A DNA stretch of 64,000 nt from Deltaproteobacteria bacterium (GTDB taxonomy: Bacteria; Myxococcota_A; Polyangia; HGW-17), in assembly GCA_016937155.1 (NCBI GenBank), contig JAFGWM010000066.1:1-64000 (forward strand). Reading direction: 5' to 3'. Under the pieces are notes generated by a model, which was given only the letters and a program-made list of their open reading frames with translations, did not search any database and was not told where the DNA came from. A program made the position numbers and the translations under genes. Position 1 is the first letter of the stretch, and each line of letters begins with the position of its first letter. Of this stretch, positions 58,613 through 64,000 are shown one piece after another.

Positions 58613-59977
58613 TCAAGGAATTTCCTGTTTTTTTTCAAAAGACGGTTCCAGTTCCGATGGTAGTATAATTCCACCTGAAATACAGGCAGCTTTAATCAGA
58701 CATGAATACACAAGTGCAACTGAGGGATCATAATTATTTAAAGCATGTAGGTGCTTTTTTATAGTACTAAAATCTTTTCGGATTAATGGTCCACTGATTA
58801 CAGATTCAGCAGAATTGAACAAATTTACGAAGTACTCCTTGTCATCAATTTGAGACAGGCTGCACATCAGGTCTGTTAAAATATCAATCGAAACCCCAGA
58901 TAGTTGGGATAAAATATCCATTGATTTTCTGAATACCGGTTTGGAGAGATTAGCCACTGCATTGCATGCACTATGATAGAGACTATAGTCAGGTTCACTT
59001 TCCAGAAAAACTATTGAGAATCCTGAGTGTTTAAGAAAATTAATCTCTGTTTCTGAAGCAAAATGGGAATGAAATACCCACTTGACTTTTGAAAGATCCG
59101 TATCATGGGAATGAACAGGAGCTGCAGGATGAAAAAGGCACCCTCTTGCATCCCGAGAAGTTTTTTCATACCATGGGACTGCACCGGAAACTGATAAAAC
59201 AAGGGCATGAGTATCCTCAATAGCAACTGTAATATTGTCAGGTGTACAGAGAAAAATGTAATCCACGTTTTTAATGTCCACGTTCATGATGCTATTTGAC
59301 TGTTGAATGTAATCTTCTGAACTGTGATGAGGAGTCAGAATCCAGTCAACTCTGATGTGAGAACCTTCAAGAAAGTGGCAGATTGATTCTCCAACTCTGC
59401 CAAAACCAATGATCCCTGCTGTTTTTTCAGACTGAATTTTATAAAGCGAATGTTTAAGAATGAGGCTTTTAACATCAGGGGCAATGAAATCTCCGGGGCT
59501 TTGTCCTCTGGAAATCATCCGGCGAATATAGCTGGAGCTTATTTGGGGTAGAGATATACCATCTTCACTACTGCTGATTAATCCTCTTTTTATTTCACGA
59601 ATCTGCCACCTGGATTTTAAGTCTGAATATCTGTACCAGTTTTCAAATGAATATGAATTATCACTTCCTATATAGAGAACAATATTATAATCAGGATAGA
59701 TGCTTTGAATTTTATCCAAAGTGTCATATGTGTATCCACTTAATTCAGTTGAATTTTCTATATCAGAAATTTCAACATTTCGAAAAAAAGAAAATGCTTT
59801 TCGGCACATTTCCATTCGAATTGAAAAATCAGTCATTTGCTTATGATAAGGATGGTTGGCTGATGGTACAACCAGCAGTTTATCTATTCCGTCTGTGAGG
59901 GCTACAGAAATAATGAAGGAATGGGCAATATGTGGTGGGTCAAAGGCGCCTCCAAAGACTCCAATAGTTTTTTTCAT
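58613..59977 (-). CDS. nadD: NadD-DUF2520 fusion: nicotinate-nucleotide adenylyltransferase plus Rossmann/DUF2520
   Basis: 454 residues, over twice the usual NadD length (about 200). Residues 1-180 are a complete NadD: GGAFDPPHIAH (9-19), VPSANHPYHK and ISSSYIRRMI near 146-155. It makes deamido-NAD from nicotinate mononucleotide and ATP. Residues 187-440 are a Rossmann domain with GFGRVGESI, then the DUF2520 pattern (VLSVSGAVPWYE, LFHPAAP, DYSLYHSACNAVANL, GPLIRKDFSTIKKHL). DUF2520 proteins are uncharacterised dehydrogenase-like enzymes, in some genomes next to pantothenate genes. Joining them may couple NAD synthesis to an NAD(P)-dependent step. The start overlaps the permease stop by four bases. 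Confidence 0.88.
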   Translation of the reverse strand: MKKTIGVFGGAFDPPHIAHSFIISVALTDGIDKLLVVPSANHPYHKQMTDFSIRMEMCRKAFSFFRNVEISDIENSTELSGYTYDTLDKIQSIYPDYNIVLYIGSDNSYSFENWYRYSDLKSRWQIREIKRGLISSSEDGISLPQISSSYIRRMISRGQSPGDFIAPDVKSLILKHSLYKIQSEKTAGIIGFGRVGESICHFLEGSHIRVDWILTPHHSSEDYIQQSNSIMNVDIKNVDYIFLCTPDNITVAIEDTHALVLSVSGAVPWYEKTSRDARGCLFHPAAPVHSHDTDLSKVKWVFHSHFASETEINFLKHSGFSIVFLESEPDYSLYHSACNAVANLSKPVFRKSMDILSQLSGVSIDILTDLMCSLSQIDDKEYFVNLFNSAESVISGPLIRKDFSTIKKHLHALNNYDPSVALVYSCLIKAACISGGIILPSELEPSFEKKQEIP

Positions 59978-61503
59978 GTTTTTCTCCTGGCCAGTCCTCC
60001 TGCAGGATCACTTTTTGCCGCTTTAAGAGCTGGAAAAAGAGTGGCTGCAATGCACAAAACAAAAGTAGTCAGAGAGATCATAACAAAACTTTCAATACTG
60101 ATATTCACAGGAAGTTTGCTTATAATATATACTTCCGGGTCAAGAGGAAAAGAATACTCTTTAAGAAGAAAACTGATAAGTGTTCCAAGGGTCTGCCCTG
60201 CAATAAGGCCAATGATTCCAATTATCATACCACTGGTCACAAAAATCATTGCAATGCTGGAGTCTGAAGCCCCAATGGCTTTCAGAATAGCAATTTCTTT
60301 TCTCTTATCAAGAACGAGCATATAAAGAGCACTGAGAACTCCGAAGGAAGAAACAGTGATGAGAAAAAACAATAAGACCCAGATAACAGTTCTGTGGAAC
60401 TGAAGATTCTGAAAGACCTGTGGATTAAGCTCACTCCAGGTTACAACCCTTAGACTTACACCATTTTGCTGTAATGCAGACTTTAGTCTGGCACTGACAG
60501 CATCCGCCTGATCCATATTTTTGAGTCTCATTTCTATTCCAAAAACTGTAGGTTTATCGTTCTCACCAGTGGGATTAAAAAACCTGGTAACATGAATATG
60601 AGTATAGGCCAGTTTCTGATCATATTCTTCAAACCCCGCAAAGAATATTCCGGTTACACAAAATTCAAAGTTCTTAACCGGGACAGTTTTTGTTGAAGAA
60701 CCAAGAGTTCCGGAAAAACCAAGGAAAGGGCTTACTAAAGTTACTGCATCTCCTATTTTAATATTCAATCGATCCGCAAGGGCTTTACCCAGAATTATGG
60801 ATGGCCACGGAGCCTTCTGGGATCTGCATAGTTCATTCCCAAGGGGTTTGGTCCCGTTTTGTTGAATACTGTCAAGGGTATCCTCAGAATCATCAAAATC
60901 GCTGGGTTCATCAGTATCGGGAGAGTAGTCCTTGTTAAGGTTCAGTGATTCTATGGAACCTGATTTCAGATGTTTTGGCAAATCCAGTACTTTTTTTGAA
61001 ATATCAGGTGATATTCCTTTTATCAGTACTCCACTGTGCTTTCCATCTTTCATGATCAGCATTTCATTCAGGTTAAAGGGAGCTGCTTCAATTACATCCG
61101 GATCTTTCCTGGATATTTCCAGGGGAAGCTCAAAGTTCGAAAATGGACTGGAATGAGGCATAAGCAAAATATGTCCATTTACCCCAAGAATTTTTTCCTT
61201 GAACTCCCGTTGAAATCCGGATGATACAGACCAGACGATACTTATCACTGCGGTGCCCAAGAGAACACTCGTAATTGATATTGTGGTGAAAACATTAAAA
61301 AATATCAGTAATCCTGTGGTTAAAAAAGTAAGTAACCCGACACTGGTGAGAATAATCGCAGGAAACTGTAGAAACTTAATATCAAATATAAAAACACTGA
61401 TCCCAAGAAGAACAAGGGTTATGCTGAATAAAAAAATCTTAAGTATACTTTTACTTTTTCCTGGGGAATACAGATATTTCCAGCTGGTGAAAATCTCGAA
61501 CAT
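59974..61503 (-). CDS. LolC/LolE-like lipoprotein-release permease
   Basis: 509 residues, about 100 longer than LolC/LolE. The extra is an N-terminal pair of membrane helices (about 22-60) before the usual first helix. A periplasmic MacB-type domain (about 95-350, with EAAPFNLNEMLIMKDGKHSG) follows, and then three FtsX-type helices with the DKRKEIAILKAIGASDSSI motif, which couples to the ATPase. Lol permeases extract lipoproteins for export to the outer membrane. No LolD ATPase is nearby. The start overlaps the stop of the signal peptidase-like gene (TAATG), and its own stop overlaps nadD (ATGA). Confidence 0.85.
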   Translation of the reverse strand: MFEIFTSWKYLYSPGKSKSILKIFLFSITLVLLGISVFIFDIKFLQFPAIILTSVGLLTFLTTGLLIFFNVFTTISITSVLLGTAVISIVWSVSSGFQREFKEKILGVNGHILLMPHSSPFSNFELPLEISRKDPDVIEAAPFNLNEMLIMKDGKHSGVLIKGISPDISKKVLDLPKHLKSGSIESLNLNKDYSPDTDEPSDFDDSEDTLDSIQQNGTKPLGNELCRSQKAPWPSIILGKALADRLNIKIGDAVTLVSPFLGFSGTLGSSTKTVPVKNFEFCVTGIFFAGFEEYDQKLAYTHIHVTRFFNPTGENDKPTVFGIEMRLKNMDQADAVSARLKSALQQNGVSLRVVTWSELNPQVFQNLQFHRTVIWVLLFFLITVSSFGVLSALYMLVLDKRKEIAILKAIGASDSSIAMIFVTSGMIIGIIGLIAGQTLGTLISFLLKEYSFPLDPEVYIISKLPVNISIESFVMISLTTFVLCIAATLFPALKAAKSDPAGGLARRKT

Positions 61504-62609
61504 TATTTAGTCTTTCCGGATAAATCGCTTCCAATTCTGTGCCATCTGATACCTTCATTTTTCCATGATGACCAGAGAATGCTGATAGGGCTGCCAAGGA
61601 TATCTGAAATATCATTCAATTTCCAGCCATCCTTCATATAGTTCTTTAAGGTGTACTCTGTCCTGATATCAGGAATCAGAAGATATTTGGTTCCCGTATC
61701 TAGGGTAATTTTTTCTATGCTTCCGAGTCTGGAGTTACCGCTTTTATAGGCGGTGCGGTATCTCAATTCAGGAGATATTGTCTCTTCAACATAATAGCAT
61801 CTGGTATATTTCCCATCGGAGTCAAAAAAAACACAGGGTTCATTTGAACGTATCATACTTATTTTTATGTTTTTATTTCCAGTTTGGATGGCGAATTCCA
61901 TTTCGCCTCTTGCATTAAACTGAATTGTAACTTTTTCATCCGGAAGAGCAATGACCCGTGAGAACACTTTTTTATTACCATCTCTGAATGCCACTATATC
62001 TCCTCTTTTAATTTTATTTCTGGAAAACAGTGTGGAAATTCCAAATCTGCTTCTGTTAAGAACGACTATGGTGTCACCAGGTTCTATATTGCTGATTACA
62101 GATGGAATCTGGGCTCTTATGAATGAAAATTTGTATGCAAAAATTCCAAATGTAAATAATGAAGTTGTAGTGAAAATGAGGAACCATTTTCTAACAAGGG
62201 GTTTTCTTGCTTTTTTACCCCCCAAAAACCAGCTGTCAATAATGCAGATAAGTTTAACGGGGATGCCCAGCAAAAACAGAGGAGAATTAAATGAAGGTAT
62301 CAGTCCCAGTCCGATAATTGGTGCACTGACGATAAGTGGGCCTGTAAAAAGTCCGGTTACGGCAGCTAAATAAAAAAATCCCGGGGATTCGAGAATGATT
62401 GTGGCAACCATTGCGGCCACAGGCCCGAAAAGAAAGACGGCCCCCTTAACTCTGTGATGTCCTTGCCACTGTCCCCATCCACTGAAAAGAAACGATAATA
62501 ATGCCAGAATAAAGCGATGCTTCATATTTCCTCGATGATTAACCTGTTTTTCTACAGGCTTTCGAGATTCTTCCTCATTTCTTTCAATCCCTGTCAATGA
62601 GTTACTCAT
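61503..62609 (-). CDS. Degenerate signal peptidase I-like membrane protein
   Basis: 368 residues. After a cytoplasmic stretch of about 28 residues, four or five membrane helices (about 30-160) include GQWQGHHRVKGAVFLF, a TM2/DUF5683-like start. The C-terminal 200 residues follow the S26 signal peptidase fold: IEPGDTIVVLNRSRFG, RGDIVAFRDGN, VFSRVIALPDEKV and a late SPISILWSSW. But box B has no S-M-x-P-T core, and the general-base lysine of box D (IKRVIALPGD type) is Ser217. The GDNR box is also eroded (LIPDIRTEYT). It is probably not a peptidase, or uses other residues. It may bind signal sequences or regulate the permease encoded next. Confidence 0.72.
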   Translation of the reverse strand: MSNSLTGIERNEEESRKPVEKQVNHRGNMKHRFILALLSFLFSGWGQWQGHHRVKGAVFLFGPVAAMVATIILESPGFFYLAAVTGLFTGPLIVSAPIIGLGLIPSFNSPLFLLGIPVKLICIIDSWFLGGKKARKPLVRKWFLIFTTTSLFTFGIFAYKFSFIRAQIPSVISNIEPGDTIVVLNRSRFGISTLFSRNKIKRGDIVAFRDGNKKVFSRVIALPDEKVTIQFNARGEMEFAIQTGNKNIKISMIRSNEPCVFFDSDGKYTRCYYVEETISPELRYRTAYKSGNSRLGSIEKITLDTGTKYLLIPDIRTEYTLKNYMKDGWKLNDISDILGSPISILWSSWKNEGIRWHRIGSDLSGKTK

Positions 62610-62656: not shown

Positions 62657-63271
62657 TTATTTGGAAAGAAGGTTTTCCCTGAGATAGGCTATTCCAGCTT
62701 CAGTCATGCGATATTCTTTCGCATTGCGTTTCCCGTTTTTCCGTAGTCTGGAAGAAATAAGTTTGTTTTCCAGCCCTTTATTGTGAAGAGCCTTTCTGAC
62801 ATTCCCAGGAAGAACTGAAAACTGATAAACCTCACAGTGATCACTGATCTCTCTTGGTGAAAGCCATTCCTGCTCAGACCGGGCCATAGCATAAAGAATT
62901 TTCAGCATCTGATCTCTTGAAAATGCATTTTTCAGTTTTGAGTATGGAATTTTTTCAAGTGATGGAATCAGATCGAATGAATCTTCTTCAGGTGGAGCAT
63001 TCAATGGGATTTCTTCATCATCAACAGATTCTTCCTCTTCAGGTGGCTCAAGTTTAACTTCAGAAGTATCAGGCTTTTGAATTGAAATTTCTGTTTCGCG
63101 AACTTCCACAGTTTCTTCCGGTACAAGGGAAGAAACACGATCCCATAATACCGGACCCCACTGTTCAAGAAGTCTGGTGGTTCGGGAGAAAACCTCCTCA
63201 GTCAGTTTTGAGCCAATATCGAGCCCTGTTTCCAGAATTCTATCTTTCAGATCCAGTAACTTTTTAATCAT
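62657..63271 (-). CDS. Winged-helix-like protein of unknown function
   Basis: 204 residues. An N-terminal amphipathic segment (about 1-45), an acidic linker rich in Glu and Pro (about 55-105) and a C-terminal domain of about 90 residues with the winged-helix pattern (MLKILYAMARSEQEWLSPREI, LPGNVRKALHNKGLEN, EYRMTEAGIAYLRENL). The wing and recognition helix suggest DNA binding, but the acidic linker also allows a protein adaptor. AAAGGA precedes ATG 63271. It follows the DUF4350-type gene on the same strand with a 57-base gap. Confidence 0.68.
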   Translation of the reverse strand: MIKKLLDLKDRILETGLDIGSKLTEEVFSRTTRLLEQWGPVLWDRVSSLVPEETVEVRETEISIQKPDTSEVKLEPPEEEESVDDEEIPLNAPPEEDSFDLIPSLEKIPYSKLKNAFSRDQMLKILYAMARSEQEWLSPREISDHCEVYQFSVLPGNVRKALHNKGLENKLISSRLRKNGKRNAKEYRMTEAGIAYLRENLLSK

Positions 63272-63328: not shown

Positions 63329-64000
63329 TCAATAGTCCTCAGTATAATTTAGTGAATTTAGAATGATTATCAATTCTTCAGCTGTTGCGATAAGATCCAC
63401 AATTATATTGGGATCCAATTTGTTAAGGAAAGGAGAGTCAGCATTAAGAGTAGTACCAAGGTAGGGCAAAAGTGGTACTAAAAGTTTGCGGGTGCCGCTG
63501 CTTAAATGGTTGATATCACCATTTAGAATATTTTTCATTGAAGGATCAGATGTAATTTTTTCCCTTAGAATTTCAGTTACAGCAAGAAACCTGTATTTCA
63601 GTTTCAGGTACCTGTTTGTGGAACTATGGGAAGGTGGCAGTGGTGTTGAGAGAGTTTTCTGTGTACCAAAAAGAACAGTTATATAAATAAATGGTGTAAG
63701 GAAAAGGAGAAGAAGTAATCTTAATCCGATCTGATTCTCACTCAACTGTTCATACATCTGAATAAGGAAGTCTCTAATAATTTTGCTCAGCGATTCTGAA
63801 TATTTTTTATCCGGAGAGACTCCTTTAGGCCAGCCTGATTCGGTAAAATCAGTAAGAAATAAAATATTTCGATTTGATTTCCTGAGATAGATTGCAAGAT
63901 TATCAGCAAATATTCCATTATCTCCTCTTTCAAGCATGTCATTTATCAGAATACTTGGATCACTCAAAAGAAGAAGTTCGCCTTTACCTATTGTGACTTG
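63329..64000 (-). CDS. DUF4350-type membrane protein, truncated at the window edge
   Basis: The frame stays open to the last base, so the start lies outside. The visible residues begin QVTIGKGELLLLSDPSILIN, followed by DNGIFADNLAIYL; this GxGxLLLLSDP...DN pattern is the C-terminal part of DUF4350. A membrane helix (LLLLLFLTPFIYITVLFG) and a helical tail follow. TTG 63967, the first possible start inside the window, is inside the domain and not real. DUF4350 genes usually sit with MoxR ATPase, DUF58 and DUF4129 genes, so such a cluster probably continues past 64000. Confidence 0.75.
   Translation of the reverse strand, partial: QVTIGKGELLLLSDPSILINDMLERGDNGIFADNLAIYLRKSNRNILFLTDFTESGWPKGVSPDKKYSESLSKIIRDFLIQMYEQLSENQIGLRLLLLLFLTPFIYITVLFGTQKTLSTPLPPSHSSTNRYLKLKYRFLAVTEILREKITSDPSMKNILNGDINHLSSGTRKLLVPLLPYLGTTLNADSPFLNKLDPNIIVDLIATAEELIIILNSLNYTEDY

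What the first reader, a model, noticed from the sequence alone, without database searches (positions are those of the whole stretch)
61503..62609. Signal peptidase I-like protein without the Ser/Lys dyad, coupled to a Lol-type permease
The S26 fold is recognisable, but box B lacks S-M-x-P-T and the general-base Lys is Ser. It carries extra N-terminal helices and is translationally coupled (TAATG) to a LolC/E-like permease, itself coupled to nadD. A non-catalytic signal-sequence reader feeding a lipoprotein or membrane permease would be new.
Basis: partly seen in the sequence, partly recalled or inferred. Interest (0 to 1): 0.55.

Follow-up and report, generated by a model that had tools for sequence, protein, structure and literature searches.

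The report
Catalytically dead signal peptidase-like membrane protein
An uncultured myxobacterial relative carries, beside its normal signal-peptide-cutting enzyme, a second copy that has lost a residue needed for cutting but is still kept by natural selection, so it probably binds proteins in the cell envelope instead of cutting them.

Summary
The ORF at 61503-62609 (-) is a real, conserved S26 (signal peptidase I) homologue that should not work as a Ser/Lys peptidase. The general-base Lys is Ser217 here and is missing in 9 of 9 family members; box E is degraded. Profile and AlphaFold comparisons support the S26 fold (Z 14.4 to E. coli LepB). The host is an uncultured myxococcotal genome that also has an intact LepB. 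The family was found in 7 of 8 genomes of the window's family and 2 of 2 of a sister family, forms one supported clade, and is under purifying selection where measurable. It is therefore a retained pseudopeptidase. The order 204-aa gene, pseudopeptidase, LolE-like, NadD is constant in the window's family. But the sister family has the pseudopeptidase away from LolE, and a third family has LolE without it, so an obligate Lol partnership is not supported. Extra N-terminal helices also occur on intact S26 proteins of the class. Dead S26 proteins have precedents (SipA, SpsA). Most likely: a membrane-anchored peptide- or protein-binding envelope factor. Ligand and function are untested.

The parts
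61503..62609 (-). Dyad-less S26 (signal peptidase I-like) membrane protein, 368 aa
   Evidence: ORF; PF10502 26.9 bits; family profile vs E. coli LepB in PDB E 2.4e-11; fold Z 14.4
62223..62525 (-). N-terminal membrane domain (residues 29-129), begins with FSGWGQW, a variant of the PG-x-G-H/Q motif
   Evidence: AlphaFold helices; hydropathy; resemblance to N-termini of class S26 paralogues (hhalign probability 76%, 34 columns)
62130..62192 (-). Membrane anchor helix (residues 140-160), preceded by a Lys/Arg-rich loop
   Evidence: helix 140-160; basic residues 132-141 read from the sequence
61536..62129 (-). S26 fold domain, predicted periplasmic (residues 161-358)
   Evidence: side of the membrane inferred
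62100..62102 (-). Ser170 codon, at the nucleophile (Ser90) position
61959..61961 (-). Ser217 codon, at the general-base Lys145 position
61641..61673 (-). Degenerate box E, PDIRTEYTLKN in place of GDNRxNSxDSR
61797..61835 (-). Cys259...Cys271 pair conserved in pseudopeptidases and the LepBs compared
59974..61503 (-). LolC/E-like (FtsX) permease, overlaps the pseudopeptidase stop
   Evidence: adjacent in 7 of 7 window-family loci
58613..59977 (-). NadD fused to a DUF2520-type domain
62657..63271 (-). 204-aa protein with a weak wHTH-like C-terminus; upstream neighbour in 6 of 6 window-family loci that reach it
   Evidence: PadR, E 0.12, below cut-off
63329..64000 (-). DUF4350 membrane protein, runs out of the window (383 aa as read on the contig)
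   Evidence: found in 4 of 6 window-family loci that reach it

Best explanation
A retained pseudopeptidase. Supported by results: a second signal peptidase I paralogue with an N-terminal helical membrane domain, whose clade (window family and sister family) lacks the Lys general base throughout, has degraded boxes B and E to varying degree, and keeps the S26 fold. Inferred: the domain faces the periplasm and, as proposed for SipA, uses the S26 cleft or surface to bind an exported peptide or protein at the membrane, acting as an envelope assembly or holding factor and not cutting it. In the window's family it is probably co-transcribed with, but not obligately tied to, a Lol-type permease.
For: Lys absent in 9 of 9. 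Box-E Gly272 is Pro or Ser in 8 of 8 compared; SipA likewise lost that Gly along with Lys. Ser is Ala in three g4 species whose gene is under purifying selection: dN/dS 0.127, 0.179, 0.183 (three overlapping pairs of the same three species). No stop inside the matched stretch in 9 of 9, G007 being cut by its contig end. f1+f2 are one clade, 99/97. Asp314, Arg316 and Arg218 and the Cys pair are kept in 8 of 8. Val260 is fixed in the clade (8 of 8) and in none of the 45 other rows, and Pro341 in only one of them. Fold matches LepB Z 14.4 and SipA Z 10.1. One intact LepB in the same genome.
Against: No ligand or phenotype known. The model is of modest quality (mean pLDDT 65.4, pTM 0.58), so the cleft shape is not established. 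Cleft positions are only partly conserved (Phe84 is Ile, Phe, Ala or Thr; Pro87 is lost in 8 of 8). Two members, G004 and G006, fall below Pfam's S26 cut-off (13.3 and 13.5 of 22.9 bits). The protein evolves faster than LolE (27-52% against 57-75% identity to the window's). Of five residues that set the clade apart from 10 LepBs, Leu310, Leu311 and Leu345 recur in other S26 paralogues, so they say little.
Confidence: 0.7

Rival explanations
1. Dedicated accessory subunit of the Lol system: the dead S26 domain docks on the LolE-like permease and presents or holds lipoprotein N-termini.
For: Tight adjacency in 7 of 7 window-family loci. The Lol parts look split in this genome: a LolC/E-like gene beside a prfB-like gene, a LolD-like gene beside bamA and Skp-like genes, the LolE-like gene in the window.
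Against: f2 has the pseudopeptidase away from LolE; f3 G009 has LolE at 51% identity, with the same DDSEET insertion, and no pseudopeptidase was found. The next gene is nadD, so the cluster is not purely lipoprotein-related.
Confidence: 0.17
2. Active peptidase with a non-standard base (Ser170 nucleophile).
For: Ser170 kept in 4 of 9. In those four Lys160, Lys226 and Glu352 are also fixed; whether one reaches Ser170 in space was not measured.
Against: The base position itself is Ser, Tyr, Gly, Val, Met or Arg. Ser is Ala or Gly in the other 5 of 9. Lys160 lies at the membrane end before the first strand and Lys226 nine residues past the base position, so neither is an obvious substitute.
Confidence: 0.05
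3. Decaying pseudogene or lineage relic without function.
For: Fast divergence (27-52% identity within f1) and loss of boxes B and E.
Against: dN/dS 0.13-0.18; open frame in 9 of 9; gene order kept.
Confidence: 0.04
4. Regulatory partner of the active LepB: a dead subunit that binds LepB or shields its substrates.
For: Paralogue of an enzyme present in the same genome.
Against: On another contig than lepB; no direct evidence.
Confidence: 0.04

Closest known systems
Signal peptidase I (LepB, S26A)
   Same: S26 fold, Gly-Asp after box B, Arg146, Asp273-x-Arg275, Cys pair of the class's LepBs, membrane anchor
   Different: No general-base Lys, degraded boxes B and E, extra N-terminal membrane domain
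Streptococcus pyogenes SipA (PMC4049620)
   Same: Dead S26 fold; Lys and the Gly272 position both changed (passages); structural match Z 10.1
   Different: SipA has Asp and Gly at the dyad and works in pilus assembly; here Ser is kept in 4 of 9, more membrane helices, no pilus context seen
Staphylococcus aureus SpsA (PMC12445088)
   Same: Second S26 protein said to lack two conserved catalytic residues beside an active one (passages)
   Different: Different phylum; recalled, from no call, to be encoded next to spsB, here on another contig than lepB; no sequence compared
Myxococcotal PG-x-G-H/Q + S26 paralogues
   Same: N-terminal membrane domain plus S26; some also degenerate
   Different: 6 of 9 motif-bearing loci have intact Ser and Lys; the window clade has a longer N-terminal region and does not group with them in the tree
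Low-scoring dyad-less S26 paralogues of the same class ('dead2', 8 rows)
   Same: Lys lost in 8 of 8, Ser in 7 of 8; one clade with the window's family is not rejected (p-AU 0.504)
   Different: Separate branch in the free tree (88/81); other gene contexts

Membership tests
Signal peptidase I (S26A) | S26 fold and sequence similarity | tested here: met
   2 relatives below Pfam's cut-off
Signal peptidase I (S26A) | Ser/Lys catalytic dyad | tested here: not met
   Lys absent in 9 of 9; Ser present in 4 of 9
Signal peptidase I (S26A) | Curated equivalog score TIGR02227 | tested here: not met
   31.5 of 47 bits; the two f2 relatives do pass it, 60.3 and 60.6 bits, although without the dyad
Signal peptidase I (S26A) | Cleaves pre-proteins | not testable with these tools
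   needs an assay
SipA-type non-catalytic S26 protein | S26 fold without a working dyad | tested here: met
SipA-type non-catalytic S26 protein | Open peptide-binding cleft | tested here: inconclusive
   pLDDT 65 model; mixed conservation at cleft positions
SipA-type non-catalytic S26 protein | Role in pilus assembly | not tested
   no pilin or sortase noticed among the neighbours read by eye; no search was made
LolC/E permease (neighbour) | FtsX and MacB_PCD domains, LolCE as best family | tested here: met
LolC/E permease (neighbour) | TIGR02212 cut-off 362.45 bits | tested here: not met
   253.3 bits; only 2 of 14 control genomes pass the cut-off
LolC/E permease (neighbour) | LolD ATPase partner | tested here: inconclusive
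   LolD-like ATPase beside bamA on another contig, 277.5 of 307.75 bits

The most novel reading that the evidence does not exclude
A signal-peptidase fold re-used as a periplasmic docking subunit that holds lipoprotein or signal-peptide N-termini for a Lol-type permease, and one branch of a wider set of S26 paralogues in this bacterial class that were turned from cutting enzymes into non-cutting envelope factors.
Probability: 0.15. Interest if true: 0.65.

Novelty: new variant of a known kind. Interest (0 to 1): 0.35.

Why it matters
Dead proteases often become binding or regulatory proteins (general knowledge); the two dead S26 precedents found here are from Gram-positive bacteria. A selected, dyad-less S26 clade in Myxococcota, with further dyad-less S26 paralogues in the same class, suggests the fold is re-used there. 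It also warns annotators: two relatives with neither Ser nor Lys still pass the curated signal peptidase I cut-off.

Tried and rejected
Active enzyme with another base: thought unlikely, not excluded (see rivals). Pseudogene: disfavoured by dN/dS and open frames. Chance S26 match: rejected. DDSEET insertion in LolE as a docking site for the pseudopeptidase: dropped, because G009, where no pseudopeptidase was found, has it too. Bypass of signal peptidase by an ABC transporter (S. aureus, PMC5013292, passages): considered as a parallel and dropped, since an intact LepB is present and no homology was tested (I searched it under the recalled name AyrABC, which had no hit). First scan of named genomes with the protein itself found no relative. 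Placement of the clade among active S26 groups is unresolved. My first idea that the window's clade and the 'dead2' group lost the dyad independently is not shown: the AU test does not reject one clade (p-AU 0.504) and the held tree is 0.52 log units better than the free one. G005 (73% complete) shows no pseudopeptidase and no close LolE match, so it is not counted as a loss.

Rows dropped or partial: the G007 protein is cut by its contig end; it is in the alignment but not in the 8-row tables nor in the tree. L129 was dropped from the tree because the script did not find its motif; LepBs L057 and L058 (G005, G006) were left out. The 'dead2' rows were picked because they scored low, so their share says nothing about frequency. 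One search scored at most 6 candidates per genome and its list was cut; one search drew a sample of the phylum in which only 3 members of the family were found.

Literature: searches listed no title or abstract beginning about dyad-less S26 proteins of Myxococcota; passages only were seen of PMC4049620, PMC5013292, PMC12984324 and PMC12445088. This is no proof of absence from print.

Full report
What is there. The ORF 61503-62609 (-) encodes 368 aa. Pfam gives Peptidase_S26 at 26.9 bits (cut-off 22.9) over residues 140-230; NCBIfam signal peptidase I gives 31.5 of 47 bits. A profile of 8 family members finds E. coli LepB in the PDB at E 2.4e-11. The AlphaFold model is modest (mean pLDDT 65.4, pTM 0.58), but its residues 159-358 match LepB at Z 14.4 (9nlo, rmsd 3.3, 184 aligned) and SipA at Z 10.1 (4n31, rmsd 2.8, 123 aligned); the best rows that are not signal peptidases have Z about 5. 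Two relatives, G004 and G006, fall below Pfam's cut-off (13.3 and 13.5 bits). Before the S26 domain there are several helices ending in an anchor at 140-160 that follows a Lys/Arg-rich loop, which places the domain in the periplasm (inference).

Active site. In an alignment of 9 family members with 13 intact S26 proteins (table for 8 members), Ser170 falls on the nucleophile Ser90 and is Ser in 4 of 9, Ala in 4 of 9, Gly in 1 of 9. The Lys145 position is Ser (window), Tyr, Gly, Val, Met (three) and Arg (two): Lys is absent in 9 of 9. Gly272 is Pro or Ser in 8 of 8 compared; the SipA paper notes that a side chain there would clash with Lys145 and that SipA has Asn there (passages). Arg146, Asp273 and Arg275 are kept in 8 of 8, and so are both Cys of a pair shared with the class's LepBs. 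So the fold survives and the catalytic pair does not. Lys160, Lys226 and Glu352 are fixed in the four Ser-keeping members; I did not measure whether any is near Ser170.

Host and distribution. The window's genome (4.1 Mb, 95% complete) has one other S26 match, at 146.7 bits and with intact motifs. The pseudopeptidase was found in 7 of 8 genomes of the window's family f1 (the exception, G005, is 73% complete), 2 of 2 of f2, and 0 of 3 of the order's other families f3 and f4. Among 317 genomes of the class these 9 score 239-528 bits and the next hit 94 bits. In a sample of 377 genomes of the phylum 3, all f1, scored above 500 bits; everything else at E up to 1e-20 scored at most 77.6.

Evolution. 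In a 53-row tree the family is one clade (99/97) with f1 and f2 as its two sides; its place among intact S26 groups is open. Because neither side has the Lys, its loss is most simply ancestral. dN/dS is 0.127, 0.179 and 0.183 for three overlapping pairs among three g4 species (two pairs on 199 codons), against 0.066 for LolE in one pair. Five residues set 8 of 8 members apart from 10 LepBs; against all 45 other rows, Val260 is exclusive and Pro341 nearly so (one exception), while Leu310, Leu311 and Leu345 recur elsewhere. Purifying selection without the dyad points to a role other than cutting.

Neighbourhood. In f1 the order is DUF4350, 204-aa gene, pseudopeptidase, LolE-like, NadD-DUF2520, FHA. 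Pseudopeptidase-LolE adjacency: 7 of 7. 204-aa gene upstream: 6 of 6 loci that reach it. NadD downstream: 6 of 6 that reach it. DUF4350: 4 of 6 that reach it, not found in G004 and G006 at E 1e-5. FHA: found in 4, the window, G001, G004 and G006 (for the window). Junctions are a one-base overlap in the window and 0 to about 20 bases elsewhere. In G006 the LolE reading frame is broken. In f2 G011 the genes after the pseudopeptidase are YbjN-like and a GAF histidine kinase; G008 has a similar GAF gene (by eye). No LolE was found within the f2 stretches read; the best f2 LolE matches, 33-34% identical, are on other contigs. G009 (f3) has a 51% LolE beside a dxs-like gene (by eye) and no pseudopeptidase was found there. 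The two genes therefore come apart in both directions. The genome's Lol parts look split: LolC/E-like beside a prfB-like gene, LolD-like beside bamA and, by eye, Skp-like genes.

The wider set. Of 9 loci with a PG-x-G-H/Q membrane motif before S26, 6 (L135, L137, L141, L148, L151, L156) have intact Ser and Lys; L145 (Gly, Gln), L133 (Glu, Lys) and L158 (Thr, Lys) do not. The window's N-terminus resembles such N-termini in 34 columns (hhalign probability 76%). Eight low-scoring paralogues picked lack Lys in 8 of 8 and Ser in 7 of 8 and group together (88/81). The AU test does not reject that these and the window's clade are one clade (p-AU 0.504), so one old loss of the dyad is as possible as two. 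Loci with other changes (Glu/Lys, Thr/Lys, Gly/Lys in L100) lie elsewhere in the tree, so the dyad was probably damaged more than once in this class.

How it works. Supported by results: S26 fold, no Lys, selection, membrane anchor by prediction. Inferred: it binds a peptide or protein at the periplasmic face of the membrane, as proposed for SipA in pilus assembly, where the Asp at the nucleophile position and a nearby Lys were dispensable and a cleft mutant was made (passages). Whether LolE, LepB or something else is the partner is open; the gene-order evidence for LolE is specific to one family.

Verdict. A sound and mildly interesting pseudopeptidase; the specific Lol idea is possible but weak.

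Noticed in passing
L115, L116, L118, L120 (f6, f21, f17, f10 genomes): S26 paralogues lacking the dyad lie in or near thiamine genes: ThiG in L115, L116 and L118, ThiE in L118, ThiS in L120. Why a dead signal peptidase should travel with thiazole synthesis is unexplained.
   Followed up: partly
L146:1276-2700 (-): An S26 paralogue with Ser and His at the dyad positions (FVHRIIG), like the Ser/His pair recalled for the ER signal peptidase.
   Followed up: no
L050:7830-9224 (-) and L051:4082-5416 (+): f2 pseudopeptidases with Gly/Arg and Ala/Arg at the dyad positions pass the TIGR02227 signal peptidase I cut-off (60.3 and 60.6 against 47 bits), so automatic annotation is likely to call them enzymes.
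   Followed up: yes
L048:9238-10715 (-): The LolE-like gene of G006 is broken between two frames (one stop inside); a real lesion or an assembly error.
   Followed up: no
window 58613-59977 (-): NadD fused to a second domain matching DUF2520 (Pfam 32.5 bits).
   Followed up: no
G000:C41 (L175:2108-6376): LolD-like ATPase gene directly before bamA and two Skp-like genes (the latter by eye), on another contig than both LolC/E-like genes.
   Followed up: partly
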